Below, one piece after another: positions 1 to 32,988 of a stretch of 32,988 nt of DNA. The stretch comes from a virus. Location of the stretch: positions 1 through 32,988 of IMG/VR virus record IMGVR_UViG_3300042558_000068; one strand, written 5' to 3'. The stretch's first letter is position 1. Every line of letters begins with the position of its first letter. The notes beneath the pieces were generated by a model. The model worked only from the letters and a program-made list of their open reading frames with translations, was not told where the DNA came from and searched no databases. The position numbers and the translations under genes are program-made.

Positions 1-127
1 GCAATAAAGGTGGTCTTTTTTTGACTATTCCTTTTGTAGGACTTGAACAAAAAGCGACACAATTAACAAATGGCGGAATGACAGACGCATACTTAAAGTA
101 CGGAACATATGTTAAAAGTTTTACAAC
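1..127. repeat. Terminal direct repeat, left copy
   Basis: These 127 bases are identical to the last 127 bases of the window. The repeat lies inside a coding gene that reads through the junction without a frame break. It therefore marks a circular or circularly permuted molecule rather than a functional long terminal repeat. A length of exactly 127 is also the usual largest k-mer of common short-read assemblers, which fits an assembly overlap. Confidence 0.95.
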
Positions 128-251
128 TGTTATGATGCAACCAAGTAGCGTTTTTGTAGCTATGATGGGCTTCACAAAAAACAGACTACATCATAGAGTA
201 ATACAAAGAAATACAGTCCCAATGATTGTAAAAGAAATGTATAAAAAATAA
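1..251 (+). CDS. TET-associated-type glycosyltransferase, C-terminal part (gene crosses the window ends)
   Basis: This is the C-terminal part of the gene that starts at 32258; the two pieces join in frame across the circular junction to give a protein of about 284 residues. The first complete codon here starts at base 3 and the stop is TAA at 249-251. The segment holds the end of the GT-A-like fold, including the stretch GGMTDAYLKYGTYVKSF and a basic tail (RLHHRVIQRNTVP), both of the kind seen in phage TET-associated glycosyltransferases. A TTG at base 21 could be mistaken for a start, but the upstream coding sequence makes that unnecessary. See the entry at 32258 for the function. Confidence 0.75.
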   Translation, partial: NKGGLFLTIPFVGLEQKATQLTNGGMTDAYLKYGTYVKSFTTVMMQPSSVFVAMMGFTKNRLHHRVIQRNTVPMIVKEMYKK

Positions 252-289: not shown

Positions 290-595
290 ATGACCGCAAA
301 CGAATTAACGAAAGAAGCAATACAGACACTCAATAAAAACGGGTGTTTTGTCTGGCGCAATAACAATCTTGCAGTTAGAGGTCGCACATTTATAGGCTTA
401 AAAGGAGTACCTGATGTTGTAGGGTTTCACACAAAAAGCGGGGTAGCGGTATACTGCGAAACAAAAGCGATAGGTGATAAACTAAGCAGCTATCAAATTG
501 CATTCTTAAACTTAGCAAAGACATCAAACTGCTTCTGCTATATAGCAACAGAAGAAAATGGCAAACTAACCCTAAAAGAATATGAACAAGAATAG
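290..595 (+). CDS. VRR-NUC domain nuclease
   Basis: A 101-residue stand-alone VRR-NUC protein of the PD-(D/E)XK nuclease superfamily. Visible motifs are GVPDVVGF with the metal-binding Asp at about residue 42, CETKA giving the E-x-K pair (Glu57, Lys59), and the downstream LSSYQ with Gln69. Phage members of this family are small single-domain enzymes thought to cut branched DNA or act as repair or replication nucleases; the substrate here is an inference. It is the first gene after a promoter and overlaps the next gene by 14 bases, so the two are probably translationally coupled. The length is normal for the phage subfamily and all key residues are present. Confidence 0.85.
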   Translation: MTANELTKEAIQTLNKNGCFVWRNNNLAVRGRTFIGLKGVPDVVGFHTKSGVAVYCETKAIGDKLSSYQIAFLNLAKTSNCFCYIATEENGKLTLKEYEQE

Positions 596-1058
596 TATCA
601 TACTTGAACTTTGGGAAAGTCGAGAATTAAAGGAAGCAATAGACAAGATGCAACCTGAAGACTTGCGAGAAGATTTAAGAAGTGAGCTATTTAAAGTTCT
701 ATGTGAAATGGACGAAGAACGCATAATAGATATGCGCACACGCAACGTGTTAAAGTTTTACTTGGTTCGTACTATGATTAATATGATGCAAAGTAATACA
801 AGCCAATTTTATAGAACATATCGAAAGCCTTTAGAAGTAGAATTGATAGTACACGATAGAGATGAAGATTTACTAAAGAAAGTAGAAGACGAACTATCTA
901 AGATGCACTGGTACAAAGCAGAACTATTAAGAGTCTATGCTATAAAGCACAACTGCAACGCTAAAGAACTTAGCAGGGTTACAGGTATACCTTATATGTC
1001 AATACATAGGGAACTTAAGCTAACTAAACGTGAACTAAAAAAACAATTACGCAAATGA
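582..1058 (+). CDS. Sigma-factor-like helix-turn-helix protein
   Basis: A 158-residue, charged, mostly helical protein. Residues about 125-158 form a clear helix-turn-helix: CNAKELSRVTGIPYMSIHRE followed by a basic helix, as in region 4 of sigma-70-type proteins. The N-terminal half (DLREDLRSELFKVLCEM, then VLKFYLVRTMINMM) resembles the region-2-like helices of small Bacteroidetes phage proteins often annotated as RNA polymerase sigma factors. If that is right, it would direct host polymerase to phage promoters. A plain HTH regulator is the alternative, because I cannot recognise a canonical region 2.4. It overlaps the genes on both sides (14 and 4 bases), so it belongs to the early accessory operon. 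Confidence 0.6.
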   Translation: MNKNSIILELWESRELKEAIDKMQPEDLREDLRSELFKVLCEMDEERIIDMRTRNVLKFYLVRTMINMMQSNTSQFYRTYRKPLEVELIVHDRDEDLLKKVEDELSKMHWYKAELLRVYAIKHNCNAKELSRVTGIPYMSIHRELKLTKRELKKQLRK

Positions 1059-1288
1059 TAATTATATCAGCGATATGCTTTGCAATATTCTTTGTAGAGA
1101 TACACCAATTTCATAGAAAATGGAAATTAGATTACAAGCCTTTTAGTTGCACAAGTTGTTTAGCAGCTTGGAGTGGATTGGCTTTATATTTACTACCTGC
1201 AATATGTACCGATGTTATTGCGTTTGTATTTATACCAGGAGTGTTAGCACCTTTACTTTCAAAAATAATGTGGAACTTATGGAAATAG
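1055..1288 (+). CDS. Small membrane protein with CxxC motif (DUF1360-like)
   Basis: A 77-residue protein with two or three hydrophobic segments: residues 1-16, about 37-50 and about 52-68. Between the first and second lies KPFSCTSCLAAWSG, a CxxC-x3-W pattern like that of DUF1360-type membrane proteins found in bacteria and phages. The cysteines may bind a metal or form a disulfide; the function is unknown. The start overlaps the upstream stop (ATGA), indicating coupling. The end overlaps the start of the next small gene by 10 bases. Confidence 0.6.
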   Translation: MIIISAICFAIFFVEIHQFHRKWKLDYKPFSCTSCLAAWSGLALYLLPAICTDVIAFVFIPGVLAPLLSKIMWNLWK

Positions 1289-1524
1289 AACATAGAAAGT
1301 TTTTAGACGAACACGTTAGTAATTGGCATACAGTACAAAATGGATATGTGCGAAACATTGACTTAGACATATTAAAAATGTACGAACATATTTATCGCAA
1401 ATATATGAGTGCAGATTTTATCTTAACAGTATGGTGTGGTAACTGTATCTTTGATATGATTAAACGCTTATATACTTGGTACGAAGAACAACCTAAACCT
1501 AAAAATAAAAAAAAGAATGGCTAA
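1279..1524 (+). CDS. Small conserved-type protein with WCGNC motif
   Basis: I place the start at the ATG at 1279, giving 81 residues. The frame is open further upstream, but that part is only the shadow of the membrane protein gene. The protein is helical, with a central motif ILTVWCGNCIFDMIKRLY, and ends in a lysine-rich tail (KPKNKKKNG). Short proteins of this pattern (W-C-x2-C followed by a Met/Leu-Tyr-rich helix) are familiar in Bacteroidetes phages, but I know of no function. The CxxC could bind zinc. It overlaps the genes on both sides by 8-10 bases. Confidence 0.55.
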   Translation: MEIEHRKFLDEHVSNWHTVQNGYVRNIDLDILKMYEHIYRKYMSADFILTVWCGNCIFDMIKRLYTWYEEQPKPKNKKKNG

Positions 1525-1996
1525 CTTTATTCACCCTACCGCTATCATTGGCGATAACGTAATTATCGGAGATGGCAACTATATTGGTGCTTATTGTATT
1601 ATAGGCGAGAAAGCAGAACATAAGAAGTTTTGGCAAAAAGAAAAAGGCAAAGTTTACATTGGCGATAATAATGTTATCACAGGACTTGTAACAATAGACG
1701 CAGGTACTGAGATAGACACTTTTATTGGCAATAATTGTTTTATAATGAAACACGCACACATAGGACACGATTGTAATATTTTAGATAATGTAACAATAAG
1801 CTGCGGAGCTAAAATAGGTGGACACTCAATTATAGAAGAAGGAAGCAATATAGGACTTAACGCAGTATTACATCAGTTTGCACACGTTGGCGAAAATTGT
1901 ATGATTGGAGCAAGTGCATTCTTAAAAGGCGAAGCAAAAGCAAATACTAAATACGCAGGAGTTCCTGCACGAGAAATTGGCTCAAATATAAGATAA
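1517..1996 (+). CDS. LpxA-like left-handed beta-helix acyltransferase
   Basis: The 159-residue protein is built almost wholly of hexapeptide repeats ([I/V]-G-x-x-x-x), which fold as a left-handed beta-helix. It closely follows the LpxA branch rather than general sugar acetyltransferases. HAHIGHDC supplies His81 and His84, matching E. coli LpxA His122 and catalytic His125; GGHS gives His103 (His144); VLHQF gives His119 (His160). LpxA itself moves a hydroxyacyl chain from ACP to UDP-GlcNAc in lipid A synthesis. This version stops after the helix with AGVPAREIG and lacks the roughly 70-residue C-terminal helical domain of LpxA, so the substrate is open. Its TAA and the ATG of the next glycosyltransferase overlap by one base (TAATG), so the two are probably coupled. 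A sugar N- or O-acyltransferase acting on a glycan is the most likely role. Confidence 0.8.
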   Translation: MANFIHPTAIIGDNVIIGDGNYIGAYCIIGEKAEHKKFWQKEKGKVYIGDNNVITGLVTIDAGTEIDTFIGNNCFIMKHAHIGHDCNILDNVTISCGAKIGGHSIIEEGSNIGLNAVLHQFAHVGENCMIGASAFLKGEAKANTKYAGVPAREIGSNIR

Positions 1997-2583
1997 TGAA
2001 TGCAATAGTATACTTAAATTATAAAGATAAGAACATCAATACATTGTTTGAGAATATCAAAAATGCAGGTAAGCATATTGATATAGTTACTATCATTAAT
2101 GAAGAAGGTATAGCATTTGCAACTAATAAAGGCTTAAGGAATTTAAATTTTGATAATATAGATTATGTAACTATTATGGGTAACGATATATTAGAACCTG
2201 ATAATTGGTTGCAAATAAGAAATGACTTTTTACAAGACAAAACTATTGGTATTTGTTCTATTCCTTTACATAGTACAAGTAATGACACAGCTGATTTAAT
2301 TGGCAACTTTACTATCACAAAAGAAACTATAAAAAGAGTTGGTGCATTCAATCAAGAACTTGACCCTTACGGAGCAATAGATTTAGATTATTGTACGAGA
2401 TGCAGGGCAGCAGGTTTGCATACGAAATTCATTAAAGAATATACCGCTAATCATATTGAGCAAAATAGTATTGATGCTTATGGTTACAATAAAAATGAAT
2501 TAGTACAAAAGACCTGGAGTTTGCATAGTAATAATGTATCTGGTTATACAAATGGAAATAAAACTTATTATATAAACTTATGA
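1996..2583 (+). CDS. GT-A fold glycosyltransferase (GT2-like)
   Basis: A compact 195-residue glycosyltransferase. An N-terminal Rossmann-like strand (MNAIVYLNYKD) is followed by INEEGIAFATNKGL, typical of GT2 nucleotide-sugar binding. YVTIMGNDILEPDNWL occupies the place of the DxD metal site, with only the second acidic residue kept (GND). GNFTITKETIKRVGAFNQEL and DPYGAIDLDYCTR form the usual acceptor-side and catalytic region. No membrane segment is present, so it should be soluble. Start and stop overlap both neighbours (1 and 4 bases), placing it in a coupled cassette with an LpxA-like acyltransferase and a GT-B enzyme. The target could be a virion protein, DNA or a host glycan; the sequence does not decide. 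Confidence 0.75.
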   Translation: MNAIVYLNYKDKNINTLFENIKNAGKHIDIVTIINEEGIAFATNKGLRNLNFDNIDYVTIMGNDILEPDNWLQIRNDFLQDKTIGICSIPLHSTSNDTADLIGNFTITKETIKRVGAFNQELDPYGAIDLDYCTRCRAAGLHTKFIKEYTANHIEQNSIDAYGYNKNELVQKTWSLHSNNVSGYTNGNKTYYINL

Positions 2584-3575
2584 AAATACTTTGTATAACT
2601 TCAGCAAATAGTGGAGTTGGTTATCATAGAATTATGATGCCTATCGTTAATATGGAAAAAGAGTACGCACTTATTACAGACGTTCTTAATGACGAACTAT
2701 TAGAGCAAGGTTGGGATATTGTGCTTATGAATAGAATGCTAAACGAGATAGATGCAAAGCAAATGGACACTTGGCGAACTAAGTACGGTTTTAAATTAGT
2801 AGTCGATAACGATGACTACTGGCATTTGAGCGAAAGCCATTTGTTATATTCAAGATATAAGTTTAATAACATACCTAAACTAATTACCGATTACTTAGAA
2901 GTTGCAGACCTTTGCACTTGCACACACGAAAGGTTGGCAGACGAAATAAACTTATTCAATAAAAACGTTCACATCTTACCAAACGCATTACCATACGGAA
3001 AAGAACAGTTTGAAGATAACAAGACAGAAGATTACAAAGTAAGATTGTTCTGGAGCGGTAGCGGAACGCACGAAAGGGACTTGGAGCTACTAAGACAGCC
3101 TTTTAAACGTCTGCAAGGTATGAACATAAGAACAGTTATAGCGGGCTACAATGACGGAGAGAAACCTATATGGGATAAAATGATAGACTCTTTTACTTGC
3201 GGTCTAAAGCTTAATCCTACAATCTACAATTATGCAAGAATTACTGAATATATGGGTGCTTACACAGATAGTGATATTTCTATTATCCCGCTCGTAGATA
3301 ACAAGTTCAATGCTATGAAGTCAAATCTTAAAGTATTAGAAACGGCTGCTAAAAAGAACCCTGCTATTGTTAGCTATGTCAATCCTTACTTAGATATGCC
3401 CGTGCATTACGTTAAAAGTCAAAAGGATTGGTATAAACATATAAGAGATTTAGTAAGCGATGCAGATATGAGAAATGAAAGCGGACAGAAACTATTTGAC
3501 TTCTGCAAAAAGAAGTATAACTTTGACGAGATAAATTTAGACAGAAAGTATATTTATAGTAAACTATGCCAGTAA
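2580..3575 (+). CDS. GT-B fold glycosyltransferase (GT4-like)
   Basis: The 331-residue protein has the two-lobed layout of GT-B enzymes. The N-terminal lobe begins MKILCITSANSGVGYHRI, with the Gly-rich donor or acceptor loop, and continues through VVDNDDYWHL. The C-terminal lobe has LFWSGSGTHERDLELL, a common nucleotide-sugar loop, and NAMKSNLKVLETAAKKNP, which matches the conserved E-containing helix where GT4 enzymes hold the donor. No transmembrane helix or signal peptide is seen. It overlaps the GT-A gene by 4 bases (ATGA) and the next gene by 10. It most likely adds a second sugar after the upstream enzyme, which is an inference from the gene order. Confidence 0.75.
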   Translation: MKILCITSANSGVGYHRIMMPIVNMEKEYALITDVLNDELLEQGWDIVLMNRMLNEIDAKQMDTWRTKYGFKLVVDNDDYWHLSESHLLYSRYKFNNIPKLITDYLEVADLCTCTHERLADEINLFNKNVHILPNALPYGKEQFEDNKTEDYKVRLFWSGSGTHERDLELLRQPFKRLQGMNIRTVIAGYNDGEKPIWDKMIDSFTCGLKLNPTIYNYARITEYMGAYTDSDISIIPLVDNKFNAMKSNLKVLETAAKKNPAIVSYVNPYLDMPVHYVKSQKDWYKHIRDLVSDADMRNESGQKLFDFCKKKYNFDEINLDRKYIYSKLCQ

Positions 3576-3988
3576 TAAAATGCTCAAACGGGAAATGGCG
3601 TATCGGTAATGGCGATTGCGTATATGATACACAAGAAAAAGCGACTAAAGTATGGCAGGCTATTCTTGCAGGTGGGAAGTTCGCAGAAAGTTATACAGAC
3701 TATCCTGAGTCAGCTACTAACAACGCAAAGAGGGCAATAGAATGGGCTGACAAAAACGGTTGGGGTTCTTGCGGTGAAGCAACAGGTAAAGCAAGAGCAA
3801 GACAGTTGGCAAATCGTGAGCCGATTAGTAGAGATACGATAGCTCGTATGGCTTCGTTTAAAAGACATCAGCAACACAAAGACGTTCCTTATAGTGAAGG
3901 TTGTGGTGGGTTAATGTGGGACGCATGGGGTGGGACATCAGGTGTCGAATGGGCGATTAATAAACTAAAAGAAATAGACAATAAATAA
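3566..3988 (+). CDS. Phage protein with a domain often fused to head maturation proteases
   Basis: A 140-residue protein with two parts. Residues 1-36 (KCSNGKWRIGNGDCVYDTQE) form a small Gly/Cys-rich motif that recurs at the ends of phage proteins. Residues about 47-138 contain NNAKRAIEWADKNGWG, GKARARQLANREPISRDTIA, MASFKRHQQHKDVPY and CGGLMWDAWGG. I recognise this second part as a domain commonly attached to the C-terminus of phage prohead proteases. Here it is a separate gene about 10 kb from the protease at 14508. The function is unknown; the basic Arg/His-rich core suggests nucleic acid or capsid contact. It overlaps the upstream glycosyltransferase gene by 10 bases. Confidence 0.6.
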   Translation: MPVIKCSNGKWRIGNGDCVYDTQEKATKVWQAILAGGKFAESYTDYPESATNNAKRAIEWADKNGWGSCGEATGKARARQLANREPISRDTIARMASFKRHQQHKDVPYSEGCGGLMWDAWGGTSGVEWAINKLKEIDNK

Positions 3989-3990
3989 TT

Positions 3991-4048
3991 TGCATAGTTA
4001 AATTTTTTAATTATTAATCAACGGAAAATTTAATGGGGAAACTATGCA
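3991..4048 (+). promoter_or_regulatory. Long imperfect hairpin enclosing the HNH start codon
   Basis: TGCATAGTT (3991-3999) pairs with AACTATGCA (4040-4048), and the adjoining TTAAATTTT (3998-4006) pairs with AAAATTTAA (4025-4033). Both pairings extend one stem, with an unpaired G-rich bulge around 4034-4039. The start codon at 4044-4046 lies inside the 3' arm, so folding of the mRNA would hide it. I infer a translational control element; a DNA-binding palindrome is the alternative. Confidence 0.5.
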
Positions 4049-4298
4049 GAAACACACACAAATATATTTGCAGGGAATGGGGTATAAAACAACTGACTTC
4101 GTTCCCTGTGAAGTGTGTGGCGCAAAAGCGGTAGATATACATCATATTGAAGCAAGAGGAATGGGTGGGAGTAAAAGAGCAGATGTAATAGACAATTTAA
4201 TGGGCCTTTGTAGAAAGTGTCATATAGAATACGGAGATAAAAAACAATATAAAGAGTTTTTAAAAGACATACACGCAAAGAATTATGGCAAAGGGTAA
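4044..4298 (+). CDS. HNH endonuclease-like zinc protein
   Basis: The 84-residue protein has the small phage HNH layout: CEVC at residues 22-25, IHHIEARG with the His pair at 33-34, N51 in DNLMGLC, and LCRKCH with Cys56, Cys59 and His60. The four cysteines would hold one structural zinc, and His34, Asn51 and His60 the catalytic metal. Such proteins often lie next to terminase genes and in some phages assist packaging by cutting DNA; that role is plausible here because terminase genes begin 700 bases downstream. The start codon lies within a long hairpin arm, suggesting controlled translation. It overlaps the next small gene by 14 bases. Confidence 0.8.
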   Translation: MQKHTQIYLQGMGYKTTDFVPCEVCGAKAVDIHHIEARGMGGSKRADVIDNLMGLCRKCHIEYGDKKQYKEFLKDIHAKNYGKG

Positions 4299-4407
4299 CG
4301 AAAATAAAAACAAAATTAGCTTTGGCAAACGCAAAAGAGGTTCTGCAAAGAAGTCTTTTAACAAGCACACGCCAAGAGAAAAAGCTTATAGAGGTCAAGG
4401 CAGATGA
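4285..4407 (+). CDS. Very basic 40-residue phage protein
   Basis: This short gene starts at an ATG inside the end of the HNH gene and encodes 40 residues rich in Lys, Arg and Gly, including KISFGKRKRGSAKKSFNKH and the ending KAYRGQGR. The FGKRKRG / KSFNKH / YRGQGR pattern recurs in small proteins of Bacteroidetes phages, which supports a real gene. The composition suggests binding to nucleic acid, but no function is known to me. Its TGA overlaps the next ATG (ATGA). Confidence 0.6.
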   Translation: MAKGNENKNKISFGKRKRGSAKKSFNKHTPREKAYRGQGR

Positions 4408-4625
4408 GAAAGTTAAACGCTATATGGCTACTCTTGACACATAAGGCTTACTTCTTAGCAGTATGTAAGACAGGTAGAAACGGTGACGATATGACCACGA
4501 TAGGACACTACACCTATGCAATGGCAGAAACACTAATTAACAAACATATAGCTGACGTAGACACTTATTTAGACCAAGAAGACGCATTAGACGAAGCTAA
4601 CGACATAATTAACGGAATACTATGA
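4404..4625 (+). CDS. Small hypothetical protein upstream of terminase
   Basis: A 73-residue protein with a short hydrophobic N-terminus (NAIWLLLTHKAYFLAVC) and an acidic helical second half (DVDTYLDQEDALDEANDIIN). I do not recognise the family. The first segment is too interrupted for a confident membrane helix and is more likely the core strand of a small soluble fold. The gene is coupled on both sides by ATGA overlaps, which supports it being translated as part of the packaging operon. Confidence 0.55.
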   Translation: MRKLNAIWLLLTHKAYFLAVCKTGRNGDDMTTIGHYTYAMAETLINKHIADVDTYLDQEDALDEANDIINGIL

Positions 4626-4975
4626 TATTATTATCAAGTCAAATAGAAAGCATAGCATCACGCAAAGACAAGACAATTAAGCTTACAATAGCAACACAAG
4701 AACTAAGCCCTAAAGACGCAGCTTCTTTGTTTCAGCTTAACCAACAGTTCTGCTACTTAGCAATCAAAGAAGAACCTTTTAGCAAAGAAGAAAAAGACGT
4801 AGTAGAAAACTTAAAAGCAGACGTAGACACATTCAAGACACCAAGTCAAAGACTACGAGGCATCTTATACAGAACATACGAACAAGACAATGAAGGGTAC
4901 AAAGATTTTAACACATATTACTTATCTGTAATGGATAGGATATGTCAGCACTATAAAACAAAAATAGATGGGTAG
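4622..4975 (+). CDS. Conserved-type phage protein preceding the small terminase
   Basis: A 117-residue soluble, helical protein. The segment KTPSQRLRGILYRTYEQ followed by DFNTYYLSVMDRICQHYKT is the kind of C-terminal signature seen in Bacteroidetes phage proteins encoded just before the small terminase subunit. The function is unknown. The position and the consistent 4- and 8-base overlaps with neighbours suggest a role linked to packaging or its regulation. There is no membrane segment, cysteine motif or obvious enzyme signature. Confidence 0.6.
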   Translation: MILLSSQIESIASRKDKTIKLTIATQELSPKDAASLFQLNQQFCYLAIKEEPFSKEEKDVVENLKADVDTFKTPSQRLRGILYRTYEQDNEGYKDFNTYYLSVMDRICQHYKTKIDG

Positions 4976-5378
4976 GCATAAAGCAATAGAAACACCTGAA
5001 TTGATGCTTCAATACTTTACTGAGTATTGCGAGTATTGTAAAAGCAATCCTATTAAAGTACACGACTTTGTAGGTAAAGATGGTGACGAAGTTTACAGAC
5101 TTAGAGAAAGACCTTTGACGATTGAAGGTTTTGAAAACTACTGTTACAATCAAGGGGTTATAGGAGATTTAAGCCATTACTTTGCTAATACAAATAATGC
5201 TTACGAAGAATTTTTAACTATCTGTTCGCGTATTAGGAAAACAATTAGACAAGACCAAATCGAAGGGGGAATGGCAGGGGTTTACAATCCAAGCATAACG
5301 CAGCGATTGAATAGCTTAGTAGAGAAGTCAGAAAACAAACACGAAGTAAGTGAGATTAAAATAACTTACGATAGATAA
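4968..5378 (+). CDS. terS: Terminase small subunit (phage DNA-packaging protein)
   Basis: The 136-residue protein resembles the gp3-type packaging proteins. A helical N-terminal DNA-recognition region contains TPELMLQYFTEYCEYCK and PLTIEGFENYCYNQGV. It is followed by the conserved core EEFLTICSRIRKTIRQDQIE and GGMAGVYNPSITQRLNSLVE. It should recognise the phage DNA and load the large subunit for headful-type packaging. The stop overlaps the ATG of the large subunit by one base (TAATG), the classic terS-terL arrangement. Confidence 0.85.
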   Translation: MGRHKAIETPELMLQYFTEYCEYCKSNPIKVHDFVGKDGDEVYRLRERPLTIEGFENYCYNQGVIGDLSHYFANTNNAYEEFLTICSRIRKTIRQDQIEGGMAGVYNPSITQRLNSLVEKSENKHEVSEIKITYDR

Positions 5379-6544
5379 TGCAAACAGTAGGCTTGAAATT
5401 ACATAATCCACACCCTGCTCAGAAGCAAGTACTTGATTGCGACAGTAGATTTATTGTAATGATGGCAGGTCGTAGATTTGGCAAGTCTTTGATTAGTCAA
5501 ACTATTAGCATAGAAACTGCGGTAAATAAAAAGCGTGTAGCTTACATAACACCGACTTATCAGTTAGGCAAGATATTCTTTAAAGAGATAGTAGATTTAT
5601 TACCATTTGAGATATACTCTAAGAACGAAAGCGATTTAGTTATCACATTCATAACGGGCGGGAGTATACGTTTCTTCACAGGCGAAAGGTTAGACAATCT
5701 GCGTGGTCTGAAGTTTCACTTAGCAGTAATAGACGAAGCTTCTTTTATACCTAACTTAGAAGACGGGTGGCTAAACTCAATAAGACCTACCTTAACTGAC
5801 TACAAGGGTAAAGCTATATTCTTAAGCACTCCTAAAGGTAAAAACTACTTCTTTAGTTTGTTTAGCAAAGCAGAACCCGATTGGCAAAGCTTTAAGTTTA
5901 CTACATACGATAATCCTTATATTGACTCTAATGAGATAGATGACGCTCGTAAGCAACTGCCTGAAGTTGTATTCGAGCAAGAGTATATGGCAAACCCTGC
6001 CGAAAACGCAGCAAACCCATTCGGGAGTCAGCACATTCGAAAGTGTATACACCCTGTTACGACTATGCCTGTCGTAGCATACGGGATTGACTTAGCGAAG
6101 TCTGTCGATTGGACTGTTATCGTAGGCTTAGACGAAGACGGTAATGTAGCTTATTTTGACCGCTTTCAAATGGATTGGCATAATACTAAGCAAAACATAC
6201 TTAGACTGTCTAAATGCCCTATCTTAGTCGATTCCACAGGGGTTGGCGACCCGATACTCGAAGACTTACAAAGAGAAGGGGTAATGATACAAGGCTTAAA
6301 GTTCACAAGTTCAAGTAAGCAGCAGCTAATGGAAGGCTTACAAGCTGCCATACATCAAGGTAAGATAGGCTATCCTGAGGGTATAATCAGCCAAGAGTTA
6401 GAAGTATTTGAATATATGTACACGGCAACGGGGGTAAAGTACTCCGCACCTTCAGGCTTTCACGATGACGCCGTAATGAGTTTAGCTCTTGCTTGGCAGA
6501 ACTTCAACTTAAAGCGTGGTACAGGAAGATACGCTTTCCTATAA
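5378..6544 (+). CDS. terL: Terminase large subunit (ATPase and nuclease)
   Basis: A 388-residue packaging motor. The ATPase half has a Walker A motif AGRRFGKS (residues about 30-37), Walker B VIDEAS with Asp119 and Glu120, and the coupling motif FLSTPKGKN. The RNase H-like nuclease half has GIDLAKSVDWTVIVGLD (first Asp), LVDSTGVGD (second acidic site) and FHDDAVMSLALAW (third acidic site). It is on the short side for the family but complete in motifs. It cuts concatemeric DNA and pumps it into the prohead through the portal encoded at 17734. The gene is followed directly by the 6545-6686 control region. Confidence 0.95.
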   Translation: MQTVGLKLHNPHPAQKQVLDCDSRFIVMMAGRRFGKSLISQTISIETAVNKKRVAYITPTYQLGKIFFKEIVDLLPFEIYSKNESDLVITFITGGSIRFFTGERLDNLRGLKFHLAVIDEASFIPNLEDGWLNSIRPTLTDYKGKAIFLSTPKGKNYFFSLFSKAEPDWQSFKFTTYDNPYIDSNEIDDARKQLPEVVFEQEYMANPAENAANPFGSQHIRKCIHPVTTMPVVAYGIDLAKSVDWTVIVGLDEDGNVAYFDRFQMDWHNTKQNILRLSKCPILVDSTGVGDPILEDLQREGVMIQGLKFTSSSKQQLMEGLQAAIHQGKIGYPEGIISQELEVFEYMYTATGVKYSAPSGFHDDAVMSLALAWQNFNLKRGTGRYAFL

Positions 6545-6545
6545 T

Positions 6546-6560
6546 TGCAACAATGTTGCA
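6546..6560. promoter_or_regulatory. 15-bp palindrome TGCAACAATGTTGCA, copy 1
   Basis: Perfect dyad TGCAAC-AAT-GTTGCA. The identical 15 bases occur at 28405-28419, and both copies lie upstream of a promoter in the two main control regions. A regulator-binding site shared by the two operons is the simplest reading. Confidence 0.6.
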
Positions 6561-6576
6561 TTTCTTATTTAATTCG

Positions 6577-6606
6577 CCGGTCATCATTTTATATGCCCGT
6601 TCATCA
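6577..6606. repeat. Two direct repeats CCG(G/T)TCATCA, 20 bp apart
   Basis: CCGGTCATCA at 6577-6586 and CCGTTCATCA at 6597-6606 differ at one base and start exactly 20 bases apart, about two helical turns. They lie just upstream of the promoter at 6615-6645, a position suited to an activator or repressor that binds as a tandem. Confidence 0.45.
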
Positions 6607-6614
6607 CAATTTAT

Positions 6615-6645
6615 TTTGTTGATATGTGAATAAGTTGTATATTCG
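6615..6645 (+). promoter_or_regulatory. Bacteroidetes-type promoter with an internal DnaA box
   Basis: TTTG (6615-6618), a 19-base spacer and TATATTCG (6638-6645) fit the TTTG / TAnnTTTG promoter with one mismatch. The spacer contains TGTGAATAA (6625-6633), the complement of TTATTCACA, a perfect match to the TTATnCACA DnaA box. It would drive the genes from 6687 onward, with a leader of about 35 bases. Confidence 0.55.
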
Positions 6646-6686
6646 TTTTATAATAGTTCTTTATTTATTAACTAAACACAAAACAA

Positions 6687-6839
6687 ATGGAAATCACAAA
6701 ACTAAATTGGAACGGCAACCCATTTCTTGAAAGGCTCTTATTCTTAATGAATAAGTATAACCTTACACAACAAGAAGCAGAACCATTAGCAAAGTTAGAT
6801 TACAAACAAATTAAAGAAAAGTTATCTAAACTTAATTAA
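6687..6839 (+). CDS. 50-residue hypothetical helical protein
   Basis: The gene starts at ATG 6687 after the leader CTAAACACAAAACAA. It encodes a 50-residue protein with a short N-terminal strand (MEITKLNWNGNPF) and two helices (LERLLFLMNKYNLTQQEAE and LDYKQIKEKLSKL). The helices resemble a minimal helix-turn-helix or UBA-like bundle, which is a weak impression only. It is the first gene after the promoter. No family is recognised. Confidence 0.5.
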   Translation: MEITKLNWNGNPFLERLLFLMNKYNLTQQEAEPLAKLDYKQIKEKLSKLN

Positions 6840-6896
6840 AACAAAATAGGGGTGCGACTATTCAACGCACAATTTAATACACTAAACACAAACACA

Positions 6897-6983
6897 ATGA
6901 AAAAAGAAACCGCACAATTATTAGCAGTATTTTTAGTAGCTTGTTACCTTATTGGACAATTACAAGACATCTACTCAAAATGA
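6897..6983 (+). CDS. 28-residue single-pass membrane peptide
   Basis: This tiny open frame encodes MKKETAQLLAVFLVACYLIG followed by eight more residues: a positively charged N-terminus, one hydrophobic segment and a short polar end. The start has the same leader-like sequence (CTAAACACAAACACA) as the gene at 6687, and its stop overlaps the next start (ATGA). Those two signs, rather than homology, support it. A short inverted repeat (GTGCG 6852-6856 with CGCAC 6866-6870) lies in the 57-base gap upstream. Confidence 0.4.
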   Translation: MKKETAQLLAVFLVACYLIGQLQDIYSK

Positions 6984-7105
6984 TTTACGCTATCTGTCTT
7001 CTGCTAATTGCAACAGGTTTTGTAATAGCAGCATTATTTGACTACACAATTAAACACTATGACCCAAAGCACAAAAGAGTATATAGACAAATATTACGCA
7101 AGTGA
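6980..7105 (+). CDS. 41-residue single-pass membrane peptide
   Basis: It begins at the ATG that overlaps the preceding stop and encodes one N-terminal transmembrane helix (YAICLLLIATGFVIAALF) followed by a basic tail (KHKRVYRQILRK). It overlaps the next gene, at 7059, by 47 bases in another frame, so one of the two starts may be wrong. The function is unknown. Confidence 0.4.
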   Translation: MIYAICLLLIATGFVIAALFDYTIKHYDPKHKRVYRQILRK

Positions 7106-7271
7106 GCCGATAAGCATAATGATGTCTAACATAGATGCGACTTACTTAGAGATACTTACCTACTGCAACGAGCAGGGATATGAACCTGCAAAGCGTAGAA
7201 TGAGAAGTCCAGAACATAAGTCAGAAATCGGCTTTTTTGACATAGATAATTACAAACCCGAAACAATATAA
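7059..7271 (+). CDS. 70-residue hypothetical protein
   Basis: I prefer the ATG at 7059 over an in-frame TTG at 7038. The product is soluble, with an N-terminal helix (STKEYIDKYY) and a helix SNIDATYLEILTYCNEQGYE, then a polar end. The family is not recognised. It precedes the next gene by one base, so it is part of the same operon. Confidence 0.5.
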   Translation: MTQSTKEYIDKYYASEPISIMMSNIDATYLEILTYCNEQGYEPAKRRMRSPEHKSEIGFFDIDNYKPETI

Positions 7272-7272
7272 A

Positions 7273-7737
7273 ATGGAACTACAACAAATCTTTGAAACAA
7301 CAAAAGAACAAAGGACTGAGTTTACCTACCAATTAATTGAACGCTTAAACGCAGGGGAACTTGACCCGTTAAAAACACATCTTCAAGTTAAAGCCTTAGA
7401 GGATATGCTTGAAACCCTAAAGGCAAACAAGGACTACAAAGATGCCGTATTACAAGCAGCCGTATTAAACGGCAAGGACTTCGAGTATATGAGTGCAAAG
7501 TTTAACATTAGAGAGGTAGGGGTTAAGTATGACTTTAGCAAATGCGAAAGTCCGGCTTACGACGAGATAATGACTGACTTTAATGATGCGACTAAGCGCA
7601 AAAAAGATATGGAAGACTTTTTAAAGAAAGTTCCGCATCAAGGTCTTGACATCATTAACGGAGTTACTGGCGAGGTTACAAGAGTTTATCCACCTGCTAA
7701 GAGTAGCACAACAAGTGTAGCCGTATCATTAAAGTAA
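7273..7737 (+). CDS. Conserved-type phage protein, helical
   Basis: A 154-residue, mostly alpha-helical protein. The N-terminal half has long amphipathic helices (EQRTEFTYQLIERLNAGELD, ALEDMLETLKANKDYKDAVL). The middle has FNIREVGVKYDFSKCESPAYDE, where the GVKYDFSKC segment is typical of a Bacteroidetes phage family without known function. The C-terminus ends in a Ser/Thr/Val-rich tail. It may be a coiled-coil structural or assembly factor, since the tail genes follow, but that is only context. Confidence 0.55.
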   Translation: MELQQIFETTKEQRTEFTYQLIERLNAGELDPLKTHLQVKALEDMLETLKANKDYKDAVLQAAVLNGKDFEYMSAKFNIREVGVKYDFSKCESPAYDEIMTDFNDATKRKKDMEDFLKKVPHQGLDIINGVTGEVTRVYPPAKSSTTSVAVSLK

Positions 7738-7745
7738 TAAAAATA

Positions 7746-7838
7746 TTGTACTTCTTTGCAATTTGCTTACCTTTGGCAGCGTTAGCTTACATAGGTGGGC
7801 ATCTTGCTTATGAGCTAATGTTAAAACTAAGAAAATGA
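7746..7838 (+). CDS. Possible 30-residue membrane peptide
   Basis: An open frame with no ATG near its beginning. TTG at 7746 is the best start, giving a peptide with the hydrophobic stretch YFFAICLPLAALAYIGGHLA and a basic end (MLKLRK). Its TGA overlaps the ATG of the next gene (ATGA at 7835). The membrane-peptide character matches the small genes just upstream, but the weak start keeps this tentative. Confidence 0.3.
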   Translation: MYFFAICLPLAALAYIGGHLAYELMLKLRK

Positions 7839-8491
7839 CTTGGAACGAAATCACAGTTTGGCAGTATCAACAAATCTATCCAATAGTTACTAAGCCTCAA
7901 AGCGATTGGACAAAGCTTGATATACAAACTAAGCTTGTAAGTATTGTATACAATCTAACAGACGCACAAGTAGACAATCTAAGCGTTATGCAGTTTAACA
8001 ACTTACGCAATACATTAGATTTTGTTAGTACAGAACCTAAGGGAGAGCCTATTAAATTCGCAGAAATAAACGGCAAAAGATACAGATTTATCTATGATGT
8101 CTTTAAGATTAACGCAGCAAGATATATAGAAAGCAAAGTGTTTAGCAGCGATTTGATAGGCAATTTACATAAGATTGCAGCTTCAATGGTAATGCCACAA
8201 AAGAAAAATTGGTATGGCAAATGGGTCGATGACAAGTATGACGCTTCGAAGCATAGCGAATACGCAGAAGATATGTTAGGAGCTAAATTTGTTCATATTT
8301 ACTATTCCATTGTTTTTTTTTATCAAGTATACAGAAATTGGATAGAAATTTCGAAGGATTATTTGGCAAAGGAAATGATGGAGAGCGGACTGACGAAGGA
8401 AGTAGCAGACCAGGCGGTTCAAACTTTATGCGTGATTTTGGATGGCAGTATTGCGCCAAATCTGTTGCAGACCACGAAAATATCACAGTAG
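7835..8491 (+). CDS. Tail assembly chaperone-like protein (unshifted product)
   Basis: This 218-residue protein sits just ahead of the tail genes, where siphophages place the tail assembly chaperone pair (G and GT in lambda). The body is an alpha/beta protein (WNEITVWQYQQIYPIVTKPQ, INGKRYRFIYDVFKINAARY) and ends in helices (IEISKDYLAKEMMESGLTKE). A run of nine T at 8313-8321 makes the slippery heptamer T TTT TTT in this frame. The -1 frame stays open from 8287 to 8592, so a longer shifted product is expected. The chaperone assignment rests on position and the frameshift rather than clear homology. Confidence 0.65.
   Translation: MTWNEITVWQYQQIYPIVTKPQSDWTKLDIQTKLVSIVYNLTDAQVDNLSVMQFNNLRNTLDFVSTEPKGEPIKFAEINGKRYRFIYDVFKINAARYIESKVFSSDLIGNLHKIAASMVMPQKKNWYGKWVDDKYDASKHSEYAEDMLGAKFVHIYYSIVFFYQVYRNWIEISKDYLAKEMMESGLTKEVADQAVQTLCVILDGSIAPNLLQTTKISQ
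8314..8320 (+). promoter_or_regulatory. Slippery heptamer T TTT TTT for a -1 ribosomal frameshift
   Basis: In the frame of the gene at 7835 the codons are GTT TTT TTT TAT, so the seven bases 8314-8320 form a perfect X XXY YYZ slippery site inside a nine-T run. After slipping back one base, the ribosome reads TTA at 8320 and continues to the TAA at 8590-8592. Confidence 0.6.
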
Positions 8492-8592
8492 AACAATCAT
8501 ACGAACTAAGTACGATTGAGTTCTTAAATACGCTATCTTATCTAAAAGCTAAAGCTGATTATGACAAAGAACAGCATAGAAAACTAAAATAA
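8320..8592 (+). CDS. Frameshift extension (T domain) of the tail assembly chaperone
   Basis: Read in the -1 frame after the slippery site, this segment adds 90 residues to the first 162 of the upstream protein, for a total of 252. It runs through an acidic, Gly-rich linker (FGKGNDGERTDEGSSRPGG) into a small domain, NFMRDFGWQYCAKSVADHEN and then YELSTIEFLNTLSYLKAKAD. The linker followed by the W/F-containing domain and an EFLxxLxYLKxK helix resembles the T domains of phage GT chaperones. The part beyond 8491 is coding only in this frame, and it has no convincing independent start (only TTG at 8338), which supports a shifted product. Confidence 0.55.
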   Translation, partial: LSSIQKLDRNFEGLFGKGNDGERTDEGSSRPGGSNFMRDFGWQYCAKSVADHENITVEQSYELSTIEFLNTLSYLKAKADYDKEQHRKLK

Positions 8593-8609
8593 CCCCTCAA
8601 ATAGACAAG

Positions 8610-27685: not shown

Positions 27686-27889
27686 ATGGATAGTAAAATA
27701 CTTAGCTTAGTAATTGAAGATATGCGTAGCCGTGAGCAAGTAGGTAAAAAGAAGTACAACTGCACAATGGACAGGGAAGATTTATCGACAGGCGAATGGA
27801 TAACACATTTGAAGCAGGAATTACAAGATGCAATTTTATACCTTACTAAACTTGAACAGATACACAATGCGCCTCAAAAAGATATTTAG
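27686..27889 (+). CDS. Small MazG-like protein
   Basis: A 67-residue helical protein with VGKKKYNCTMDREDLSTGEW and ITHLKQELQDAILYLTKLEQ. The K-Y-x3-[LM]-D-R-x-D-L-S...W...E..DA..YL pattern matches a phage MazG-like nucleotide pyrophosphohydrolase group. The protein is only about half the usual length: the E-x3-D metal motif (residues about 45-50) is visible, but a second acidic motif is not, so activity is uncertain. It overlaps the start of the GNAT gene by 23 bases. Confidence 0.5.
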   Translation: MDSKILSLVIEDMRSREQVGKKKYNCTMDREDLSTGEWITHLKQELQDAILYLTKLEQIHNAPQKDI

Positions 27890-28295
27890 CTTCGGCAAGG
27901 TATTAGACAAAGAAACTTACGAGCAGTTAAAAGAATTAGATTACACAAACCCAAACTTTAAAGGTTGCGGTGACGAGTTCCAGTACAATCGTGAGTGGTG
28001 GGTTATGTTAGACGAAGGCGAGATAGTTGCTTATTGCGGTTCTATTTATAGCAAGGGCATTTGTATTTTTAACAGAGCGTGGGTTAAGAAATCACATCGA
28101 GGGCAAGGAATACAAAAGCGAATGATAAAAACAAGGTTAAAGGCTGCTTCTACTTTTTGCCATATAGCTATTACATACACAACCTTAGACAACTTTCCGA
28201 GCGCAAATAACCTTATAGCTTGTGGGTTTAGACTCTACCTTCCTGAGTATTCTTACGGGGGTTCTGACAAACTTTACTTCCAGAAGTTGCTTTAA
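27867..28295 (+). CDS. GNAT-family acetyltransferase
   Basis: I take the ATG at 27867 (142 residues, MRLKKIFSFGKVLDKETYEQ); an earlier in-frame TTG lies deep inside the upstream gene. The GNAT acetyl-CoA loop is clear in NRAWVKKSHRGQGIQKRMIK (R/Q-x-x-G-x-G/Q type). It is followed by ITYTTLDNFPSANNLIACGF, where the N-N-L-x-x-x-G-F pattern is the usual motif B. Phage members of this subfamily have unknown substrates: proteins, nucleotides and DNA bases are all possible. A terminator starts at its stop codon. Confidence 0.7.
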   Translation: MRLKKIFSFGKVLDKETYEQLKELDYTNPNFKGCGDEFQYNREWWVMLDEGEIVAYCGSIYSKGICIFNRAWVKKSHRGQGIQKRMIKTRLKAASTFCHIAITYTTLDNFPSANNLIACGFRLYLPEYSYGGSDKLYFQKLL

Positions 28296-31873: not shown

Positions 31874-32268
31874 AACAAATAAACTTATTTGGTCAAGAGT
31901 TTGCTCCTAATCAAGAAGAACAAAAGTATTCTTCTAAGATTGAAGCACCTATATACGAGCCTAAGAACGTAAAGCCTCATATATTAGAACTATGCGATAA
32001 GTCAAAAACGCATAGAATTATTAACGAGATTGAGCAATCAAGCTTATCTAATGACGAAAAGTTTTTTTTAATTGATGCAGCAAGAAGACACAACGTATTT
32101 AATTACGAGAAGATTGCTGACTATTACGCACATTCTTCAAAAGAAATGCAGACTCTTATGGAGCGAAGCGGACTTGTTATTATAGATTTTGACAAAGCTA
32201 TCGAATATGGCTATGTTAAACTTTGTGAAGAAATTAAAAAACAATACTTAGAAGAATATGGAGAATAA
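31870..32268 (+). CDS. Hypothetical protein coupled to the TET-associated-type glycosyltransferase
   Basis: A 132-residue protein: KQINLFGQEFAPNQEEQKYS, a helical core HRIINEIEQSSLSNDEKFFL, then DAARRHNVFNYEKIADYYAH and LMERSGLVIIDFDKAIEYGY. The 'EK.FLI.AA.RH.VF.YekIA.YYA.....Q.LME.SgLVIIDF..AIe' pattern occurs in Bacteroidetes phages, as far as I recall near DNA-modification or replication genes, without a known function. It overlaps its upstream neighbour by 4 bases (ATGA) and the glycosyltransferase gene by 11, so the pair is co-translated. Confidence 0.5.
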   Translation: MKQINLFGQEFAPNQEEQKYSSKIEAPIYEPKNVKPHILELCDKSKTHRIINEIEQSSLSNDEKFFLIDAARRHNVFNYEKIADYYAHSSKEMQTLMERSGLVIIDFDKAIEYGYVKLCEEIKKQYLEEYGE

Positions 32269-32988
32269 AGACTATACTGTTTTTATTATATCTAATAATA
32301 GACCTAATAAAGTTTATACAGATATAATGCTAAAAAAATATAATTACACTGGCACGTCATATATTGTTTTAGATGATGAAGACAAGAGCGTAAATGAATA
32401 TATCAAAAATTTTGGTGCTGACAGAATTAAAATATTCAACAAAAAAGAAATTGCTGATAAGACAGACGAAGGTAATAACTTTGATAACAGACGAACTACT
32501 ACACACGCACGAAACGCCTGTTTTGATATTGCAGAACAATTAGGGTATAAATACTTTTTAGTTTTAGATGACGATTATACAGTATTTAGATACAGATACA
32601 TTGATAAATATATTACTAAAGGATATGTAAATAATCTTGATAATCTATTTTTACAGACTTTTAAATTCTATAAAAACAATAATTTTATTTCAATAGCGTT
32701 TGCACAGGGTGGTGATTTTATAGGTGGCGAGTCTTGTGGTTTATTAAAAAACTACATCTATAATGGCAGAAAATGTATGAACTCGTTTTTTTGTTCAACT
32801 GATAGAAGGTTCTGGTTTTTAGGACAATTAAATGAAGATGTCAATACATACGTTACTTATGGCAATAAAGGTGGTCTTTTTTTGACTATTCCTTTTGTAG
32901 GACTTGAACAAAAAGCGACACAATTAACAAATGGCGGAATGACAGACGCATACTTAAAGTACGGAACATATGTTAAAAGTTTTACAAC
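32258..32988 (+). CDS. TET-associated-type glycosyltransferase, N-terminal part (continues at base 1)
   Basis: This gene continues at bases 1-251 to give about 284 residues. It follows the TET-associated glycosyltransferase (TAGT) family: TVFIISNNRPNKVYT at the start, FDNRRTTTHARNACFDIAEQ (residues about 75-94), and YFLVLDDDYTVFRYR, whose DDDY at 104-107 is the metal and nucleotide-sugar site. FAQGGDFIGGESCG and CSTDRRFWFLGQLNEDVNTY follow. In other phages TAGTs are thought to glycosylate 5-hydroxymethylcytosine made by TET/JBP oxygenases. No TET/JBP, hydroxymethylase or methyltransferase gene is visible here, so the acceptor is unclear. GREB1-type glycosyltransferases, which act on proteins, are relatives. 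Confidence 0.75.
   Translation, partial: MENKDYTVFIISNNRPNKVYTDIMLKKYNYTGTSYIVLDDEDKSVNEYIKNFGADRIKIFNKKEIADKTDEGNNFDNRRTTTHARNACFDIAEQLGYKYFLVLDDDYTVFRYRYIDKYITKGYVNNLDNLFLQTFKFYKNNNFISIAFAQGGDFIGGESCGLLKNYIYNGRKCMNSFFCSTDRRFWFLGQLNEDVNTYVTYGNKGGLFLTIPFVGLEQKATQLTNGGMTDAYLKYGTYVKSFT
32862..32988. repeat. Terminal direct repeat, right copy
   Basis: Exact copy of bases 1-127. Removing one copy leaves a unit of about 32,861 bases in which the gene starting at 32258 continues to the stop at 249-251. Confidence 0.95.

What the first reader, a model, noticed from the sequence alone, without database searches (positions are those of the whole stretch)
1517..3575. Coupled cassette: LpxA-like acyltransferase plus GT-A and GT-B glycosyltransferases
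Three genes with 1- and 4-base overlaps encode an LpxA-type beta-helix enzyme with all four LpxA histidines (His81, His84, His103, His119 here) but no C-terminal helical domain, and two glycosyltransferases of different folds. LpxA-like enzymes are rarely reported in phages. The set could build an acylated sugar on virion proteins, on DNA or on the host envelope (for example to block superinfection).
Basis: partly seen in the sequence, partly recalled or inferred. Interest (0 to 1): 0.65.

Follow-up and report, generated by a model that had tools for sequence, protein, structure and literature searches.

The report
Phage sugar cassette with swappable module
A small virus of bacteria carries genes that probably build a decorated sugar: one sugar-attaching enzyme is kept throughout its wider family while the enzymes beside it are exchanged, and the supposed lipid A enzyme is instead closest to a known amino-sugar acetylating enzyme.

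Summary
The three genes are real and as described: acyltransferase 1517-1996, GT-A 1996-2583, GT-B 2580-3575, all under strong purifying selection. The label 'LpxA-like' misleads. The enzyme fails the LpxA family cut-offs, lacks LpxA's C-terminal domain and UDP-GlcNAc loop, and its closest solved structure is Pcryo_0615 (8e62), an amino-sugar N-acetyltransferase; in a tree 8e62 lies inside the phage clade, apart from LpxA. LpxA-like genes are also common in viral contigs. The three genes do belong together: 57 of 58 relatives fetched through a neighbouring gene carry all three, and a second lineage keeps them in the order GT-B, acetyltransferase, GT-A. The larger finding is a locus with a fixed anchor and a swappable module. 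GT-B was present in 58 of 58 and 39 of 39 relatives fetched through other genes; the slot beside it holds acetyltransferase plus GT-A, or methyltransferases, other GT-like proteins or unknown genes. GT-A itself alternates between two alleles about 32-39% identical. Soluble enzymes, no recognised integrase, no GtrA and no recognised base-hydroxylating gene favour glycosylation of a phage protein (about 40%) over the host envelope (about 33%) or DNA (about 10%). The acceptor is not shown. New variant of a known kind.

The parts
1517..1996 (+). hexapeptide (left-handed beta-helix) amino-sugar N-acetyltransferase, Pcryo_0615-like; the finding's 'LpxA-like' gene, 159 aa
   Evidence: Hexapep 81.7 bits; LpxA models below cut-off; best PDB sequence match 8e62, 119.6 bits against 83.3 for the best LpxA; Foldseek 43% id, TM 0.95; VIA Z 29.3, rmsd 1.5, 159 aligned; tree
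1996..2583 (+). GT-A (GT2-like) glycosyltransferase, type I allele, 195 aa; other relatives carry a type II allele (227 aa) in the same slot
   Evidence: profiles, family alignment A7 with invariant N63-D64-I65 and D129, two alleles
2580..3575 (+). GT-B (GT4-like) glycosyltransferase, the conserved anchor of the locus, 331 aa
   Evidence: PHROG_7162 206 bits; model pLDDT 95.5; VIA Z 26-27 to BshA and sucrose-phosphate synthase; present in 58 of 58 and 39 of 39 relatives
1055..1288 (+). small membrane protein (77 aa) upstream, conserved neighbour; role in the locus unknown
   Evidence: 19-residue hydropathy maximum 2.29 against 0.65-1.07 for the three enzymes; present in relatives
1279..1524 (+). 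small conserved protein (81 aa) overlapping the acetyltransferase start; unknown
32258..32988 (+). first part of a TAGT-family glycosyltransferase gene that crosses the terminal repeat and ends at 251; accessory, not linked to the cassette
   Evidence: PF20691 95.1 bits, cut-off 27.5; also found on the record itself; in only 5 of 52 relatives
1..251 (+). rest of the same TAGT gene; bases 1-127 repeat the record's last 127

Best explanation
The locus is a phage glycan cassette made of a fixed anchor and a swappable tailoring module. The acetyltransferase (1517-1996) N-acetylates an amino group on a host-made nucleotide-activated amino sugar (inferred; the phage has no sugar aminotransferase of its own). 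The GT-A and the GT-B then transfer sugars one after the other, the conserved GT-B most likely onto the constant acceptor and the variable GT-A and tailoring enzymes setting the variable outer part (inferred from conservation). Recombination between relatives exchanges the module while the anchor stays (shown). The acceptor I favour is a virion protein glycosylated in the host cytoplasm (about 40%); host envelope about 33%, phage DNA about 10%, other about 17%. The confidence below is for the anchor-plus-module reading with amino-sugar acetylation, not for the acceptor.
For: Enzyme identity: 8e62 is the best PDB match by sequence and structure; all non-LpxA rows plus 8e62 form one side of a branch with support 100/99 against 7 true LpxA rows, and 8e62 falls in a 25-row clade (95/99) with the window's protein; residue markers E34, T55-G56, D61, K78, G101 and C128 are shared with 8e62 and not with true LpxA as a set. 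In one phage contig (L405) a relative follows a nucleotide-sugar epimerase (158 bits) directly, with a DegT sugar aminotransferase (294 bits) two genes further upstream; in a Bacteroidota chromosome (L089) a relative lies in a polysaccharide cluster with a Wzx-like protein, FdtA, DegT and GTs. Unit: all three genes in 57 of 58 relatives fetched by the HTH gene; order GT-B, acetyltransferase, GT-A in 32 of 52 more distant loci. Swapping: GT-A type I in 20 and type II in 56 of 76 loci, at least 10 changes on the acetyltransferase tree (76 rows) and 7 on the GT-B tree (71 rows); one relative has acetyltransferase and GT-A replaced by GT-like, methyltransferase and GT-like genes with GT-B kept; among 39 TerL-fetched loci GT-B in 39, acetyltransferase plus GT-A in 8, other neighbours in the rest. 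Acceptor: no long hydrophobic segment in the three enzymes, no GtrA, tyrosine or serine integrase, thymidylate-synthase-family, C5-methylase or DegT family in the complete genome, controls ringing in each.
Against: No activity, substrate or acceptor is shown. The 8e62 branch is long (1.38) and its exact place in the clade is unresolved. Ten of the 52 more distant acetyltransferase loci show no GT-B or GT-A of these families within 4 kb. The main replacement proteins (about 227 aa and about 160 aa) match no Pfam family, so 'sugar tailoring' is my reading by eye for them. A universal GT-B could also serve host takeover. Trees of short recombining genes have weak branches, so counts of allele changes are rough. 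The sets are the best 80 hits of each scan and were not made non-redundant by sample.
Confidence: 0.62

Rival explanations
1. Host-envelope modification: the enzymes add an acetylated amino sugar to the host's LPS or lipid-linked glycan during infection, hiding the receptor from competing phages or from phage loss on debris.
For: The nearest chromosomal relative lies in a polysaccharide cluster with a Wzx-like protein; GT-B resembles PglA, PimB' and BshA, some of which act on lipid-linked acceptors; the swapping pattern resembles phage gtr operons, where the serotype gene is variable and partner genes conserved (PMC3688519, passages); pelagimyophage GTs were given this role by their authors (PMC7029224, passages); a small membrane protein is a conserved neighbour.
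Against: No GtrA family protein, no recognised integrase, so no lysogen to protect; none of the three enzymes has a membrane segment; GT-B present in 39 of 39 and 58 of 58 relatives is more than expected of an exclusion trait.
Confidence: 0.33
2. DNA hypermodification: the sugars go onto a modified base of the phage genome against restriction.
For: The same genome has a TAGT; TAGT adds a second glucose to glucosylated hmC in T2/T6, and 288 of 753 genomes have a TAGT without known alpha-/beta-GT (PMC13216743, passages); viral GTs that modify DNA with diverse glycans have been published (Pyle 2024, seen only as a reference in PMC12619734).
Against: TAGT is in 5 of 52 relatives only, so it is not tied to the cassette; no thymidylate-synthase-family or C5-methylase gene; Tet_JBP search was empty but its control was silent too; phi92-like phages, which carry a GT-B homologue, are described as exceptionally susceptible to restriction (PMC8594841, passage); GT-B model's listed best matches are GT4-type.
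Confidence: 0.1
3. True lipid A chemistry: the enzyme is a shortened LpxA that loads a fatty acid on UDP-GlcNAc.
For: Four aligned histidines; LpxA models are the best NCBIfam hits, 114.7 and 108.7 bits.
Against: Cut-offs are 226 and 231 bits; PQD loop and C-terminal domain absent, D61 in place of H/N, RE changed to TG; 8e62 beats every LpxA; separated from LpxA at 100/99.
Confidence: 0.04

Closest known systems
Pcryo_0615 N-acetyltransferase of Psychrobacter cryohalolentis (PDB 8e62), diacetamido-sugar pathway
   Same: fold, length class, about 43% identity, residue markers, clade
   Different: Y instead of H81; works after a dehydrogenase and aminotransferase pathway (that class of pathway: PMC10622841, passages), of which the aminotransferase family is absent here; the 8e62 paper was not held
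LpxA (UDP-GlcNAc O-acyltransferase)
   Same: beta-helix, four histidines, alignment over the whole protein
   Different: no C-terminal domain, no PQD loop, below both family cut-offs
phi92-type GT cluster of Justusliebigvirus coliphages (gp163-gp166)
   Same: homologous GT-B, about 30% identity, next to other annotated GTs; related viral contigs have a GT-A of our profile just upstream of GT-B
   Different: no acetyltransferase of this family found in the related contigs L276-L291; phi92's own GT-A has no convincing BLASTP match to ours
gtrABC serotype-conversion operons of temperate phages
   Same: conserved partner plus variable sugar gene, exchange by recombination (PMC3688519, passages)
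   Different: no GtrA, no recognised integrase, soluble enzymes
Virion glycosylation of mycobacteriophages Che8, Corndog, Myrna
   Same: phage-encoded GTs that glycosylate virion proteins; works-like model for the favoured acceptor (PMC12363180, PMC11256854, PMC12619734, passages)
   Different: no sequence link tested; the primary paper (Freeman 2023) is not held

Membership tests
LpxA | score above the curated LpxA models | tested here: not met
   114.7 of 226 bits and 108.7 of 231 bits
LpxA | C-terminal helical domain (recalled as part of nucleotide binding) | tested here: not met
   159 aa, model without it
LpxA | PQD-type loop and RE motif seen in true LpxA rows | tested here: not met
   A33-E34-H35 and T55-G56
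LpxA | conserved histidines | tested here: met
   H81, H84, H103, H119; a further position is D61 where LpxA rows have H or N
LpxA | uses acyl-ACP | not testable with these tools
   needs an assay
Pcryo_0615-type amino-sugar N-acetyltransferase | sequence and fold nearest to it | tested here: met
Pcryo_0615-type amino-sugar N-acetyltransferase | same side as it against LpxA in a tree | tested here: met
   100/99
Pcryo_0615-type amino-sugar N-acetyltransferase | amino-sugar source (DegT aminotransferase) in the same genome | tested here: not met
   PF01041 absent from the phage, control rings in 14 of 14; the host, which could supply it, is not known. A pathway feature, not one of the enzyme itself
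Pcryo_0615-type amino-sugar N-acetyltransferase | acetyl-CoA-dependent activity on UDP-amino sugar | not testable with these tools
   needs an assay
gtr serotype-conversion operon | GtrA flippase | tested here: not met
   PF04138 absent, control rings in 7 of 14
gtr serotype-conversion operon | temperate phage | tested here: inconclusive
   no PF00589 or PF00239; other integration routes not tested
DNA glucosylation system | enzyme that makes a hydroxylated base | tested here: inconclusive
   PF00303 and PF00145 absent; PF12851 empty but control silent
PHROG_7162 glycosyltransferase (phi92-type GT-B) | profile match over the full length | tested here: met
   206 bits, residues 2-324

The most novel reading that the evidence does not exclude
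Virulent-looking phages carry a serotype-like locus of their own: a conserved GT-B writes the first sugar on a virion protein in the host cytoplasm, and an exchangeable module (N-acetyl amino sugar, methyl sugar or other) decides the virion's outer glycan, drawing on the host's nucleotide amino sugars. The virion's sugar type would then be exchanged between phages like an O-antigen.
Probability: 0.33. Interest if true: 0.8.

Novelty: new variant of a known kind. Interest (0 to 1): 0.5.

Why it matters
Phage glycosyltransferases are often annotated but their acceptor is rarely known, and large numbers of solitary ones remain unexplained. A family in which one GT is kept in every relative examined while its partners are exchanged gives a clean handle: swap the module and see which molecule changes sugar. 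If the acceptor is the virion, it would be a serotype system of free virus particles outside any antibody pressure, which would ask what recognises phage sugars in the environment. It also corrects a tempting label, LpxA, that would send people to lipid A.

Tried and rejected
LpxA as the enzyme's function: rejected on cut-offs, loop, domain and tree. Coupling by overlapping genes as evidence for a special trio: rejected, since all eight genes from 290 to 3988 overlap. TAGT as part of the cassette: rejected, 5 of 52 relatives. Homology of our GT-As to phi92 gp165/gp166 by pairwise BLASTP: nothing convincing. P0002 against the phages collection: no match. Three GenBank 'Bacteriophage sp.' hits (H5-H7) turned out to be bacterial lipid A operons and were dropped. 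P0003 against PDB by sequence: no match alone, weak matches to MshA and PglA with its family profile. T4 alpha-/beta-GT did not appear among the rows shown for the GT-B model; this is not evidence of absence. Literature: searches listed no title or abstract that describes this anchor-plus-module locus or an LpxA-like/GT-A/GT-B trio in phages; only the papers cited were opened, by passages, and PMC10013915 and PMC10611076 were opened by passages without use, as was PMC8040287.

In one search the script's 'other' group of 57 held five loci without an identity label (L132, L210, L134, L214, L177); I moved them to the own-type group by their match to L088-type genes, which gives 27 own-type, 52 other and 1 without a hit, 80 in all. 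In one search, 79 of the 80 loci gave a TerL ORF (L459 did not) and only the 39 with at least 6 kb upstream were counted; its printed output was cut, the tallies were not. In some searches, 22 of the 80 fetched loci were dropped for less than 4 kb downstream. In one search, 76 of 81 sequences had both flanks and were counted. One outlying row (L107) was left out of the tree. Labels such as FkbM-like, GT9-like and C5-methylase-like in my scripts are by eye; Pfam did not match the first two and the third was not scanned. E. coli LpxA residue roles are recalled.

Full report
What was claimed and what is there. The record has a 127-base exact terminal repeat, so it is a complete genome of 32,861 bases although it is classed as linear. 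Terminase, portal and tape-measure genes make it a tailed phage. Selection on all three genes is strongly purifying in relatives: median dN/dS 0.042 (acetyltransferase), 0.084 (GT-A type I), 0.064 (GT-A type II) and 0.067 (GT-B), with TerL at 0.132.

The acyltransferase is not an LpxA. NCBIfam's two LpxA models are the best hits but reach only half their cut-offs. The best match in the PDB by sequence is 8e62, 119.6 bits against 83.3 for the best LpxA. The predicted structure (pLDDT 97.1) matches 8e62 with 43% identity and TM 0.95 and Z 29.3 over 159 residues at 1.5 A, LpxA entries at Z 22-26. 8e62 is titled Pcryo_0615, an N-acetyltransferase required to produce a diacetamido-2,3-dideoxy sugar. 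The related Wbp pathway acetylates a 3-amino group of a UDP-sugar (PMC10622841, passages). In a tree of 45 rows (one outlying row, L107, dropped beforehand) the window's protein, its viral relatives, two bacterial ones and 8e62 stand on one side against seven true LpxA rows with support 100/99; 8e62 sits in a 25-row clade with the window's protein. The window's protein shares E34, T55-G56, D61, K78, G101 and C128 with 8e62, a set that no LpxA row has. Context agrees: in phage contig L405 a relative directly follows a nucleotide-sugar epimerase, with a DegT aminotransferase two genes further upstream, and in a Bacteroidota chromosome (L089) one lies in a polysaccharide cluster with FdtA, DegT, GTs and a Wzx-like protein. 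The window's genome has no DegT family member, so it would depend on the host for the amino sugar. The match to 8e62 is a relationship, not a proof of substrate.

The two glycosyltransferases. The GT-B belongs to PHROG_7162; its model (pLDDT 95.5) matches GT4-type enzymes over its whole length, for example BshA Z 26.6 and PglA Z 24.6, and a chlorovirus GT at Z 22.0. The GT-A is a small GT2-like protein, assigned by profiles only. None of the three has a hydrophobic segment of membrane strength.

The genes belong together. A first scan with the acetyltransferase gave 357 relatives, 80 fetched. To avoid choosing on the outcome I then fetched 80 loci through the neighbouring HTH gene of a divergent relative: of 58 with at least 4 kb downstream, 57 carry all three genes and 58 carry GT-B. 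A scan for distant acetyltransferases (80 loci) gave 52 outside the window's own type: 32 in the order GT-B, acetyltransferase, GT-A, 2 in the window's order, 6 with GT-A only, 2 with GT-B only, and 10 with neither within 4 kb; of 27 own-type loci 26 have the window's order. The same trio in two orders is better evidence of joint function than inheritance of one operon.

The module is exchanged, the anchor is not. In 76 loci with both flanks visible the GT-A is type I (20, the window among them) or type II (56), two proteins about 32-39% identical between flanks 84-99% identical to the window's. On trees of the flanking genes the type changes at least 10 times (acetyltransferase, 76 rows) and 7 times (GT-B, 71 rows). 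A methyltransferase-like gene of about 200 aa is inserted between acetyltransferase and GT-A in 2 of the first 80 loci and in 38 loci of L125-L275, a set in which contigs repeat between two scans; a match to it is in 17 of the 58 HTH loci. One relative has the acetyltransferase and GT-A replaced by a GT-like gene, a methyltransferase (PF13847, 31.6 bits) and another GT-like gene with the GT-B in place. A scan with the terminase of a distant relative shows the pattern at larger scale: of 39 loci with at least 6 kb upstream, 39 have the GT-B; 8 have acetyltransferase and GT-A; 18 have an uncharacterised protein of about 227 aa, 10 of them with a second one of about 160 aa; 6 have a 176-aa methyltransferase-like protein (Methyltransf_23, 32.5 bits); the other 7 are single combinations, one of which shows none of the neighbour families I listed. 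Distant GT-B homologues in phi92-like contigs sit next to a GT-A of the same profile without the acetyltransferase.

What the acceptor may be. DNA: phi92-like phages with a GT-B homologue are described as exceptionally susceptible to restriction (PMC8594841, passage), the genome has no thymidylate-synthase-family or C5-methylase gene, and the one DNA-related GT, a TAGT, is in only 5 of 52 relatives. The Tet_JBP search was empty but its control was silent, so it proves nothing. Envelope: possible, and the swapping resembles gtr operons (PMC3688519, passages), but GtrA, recognised integrases and membrane segments are missing. Virion: known for mycobacteriophages with their own GTs (passages); a GT kept in every relative examined fits a structural target. 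This is inference; I put virion 40%, envelope 33%, DNA 10%.

Host. The closest relative outside viral collections is a 32.9-kb contig of the same phage type binned in a Chitinophagaceae MAG (L088), which points weakly to that family. The sample types of the IMG/VR contigs were not read out here.

Verdict. It is a new variant of a known kind (phage glycan-modification loci).

Noticed in passing
window 1-127 and 32862-32988: Exact 127-base direct terminal repeat: the record is a complete circular map of 32,861 bases although classed as linear.
   Followed up: yes
window 32258-32988 continued at 1-251: A TET-associated glycosyltransferase (PF20691, 95 bits) without any recognised base-hydroxylating enzyme; present in 5 of 52 relatives; weaker TAGT matches lie elsewhere in L088 (11555-12289) and in L437. 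The family also rings in the control genome Bacteroides ihuae.
   Followed up: partly
slot just upstream of window 290 in relatives (e.g. L051 98-1228): The position of the TAGT gene holds a C5-methyltransferase-like ORF in 22 relatives, so TAGT may occupy an anti-restriction slot.
   Followed up: no
L007:5294-5998 and 15 other loci: A PAPS-reductase-domain protein (PF01507, 33.5 bits) inserted between the 81-aa gene and the acetyltransferase in 16 relatives.
   Followed up: no
L082, L083, L084 (MT835680, MT835856, MT836264): GenBank 'Bacteriophage sp.' scaffolds that carry bacterial lipid A operons; probably bacterial DNA filed as phage.
   Followed up: partly
L348, L350, L351, L352: Other phage contigs in which a relative of the acetyltransferase lies beside an asparagine-synthase-like amidotransferase (PF00733 in L348) and further GT-like genes.
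   Followed up: partly
L087 (MW202801) 3935-8598: Spring-water podovirus with a GT homologous to GT-A type II in a sugar cassette (Fe-S oxidoreductase, PhyH, methyltransferase, NodB-like, GT) shortly after the major capsid gene.
   Followed up: no
L088 (DOMR01000068.1): Phage contig of this type (32.9 kb) binned into a Chitinophagaceae MAG, a weak host clue.
   Followed up: partly
window 5378-6544 and relatives: TerL occurs in two alleles (about 97% and 84-85% identical to the window's) among otherwise close relatives, with different neighbours, another exchanged segment.
   Followed up: no
window 27828-28295: GNAT acetyltransferase (PF13508/PF00583) of unknown role between the exonuclease and ERF genes.
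   Followed up: no
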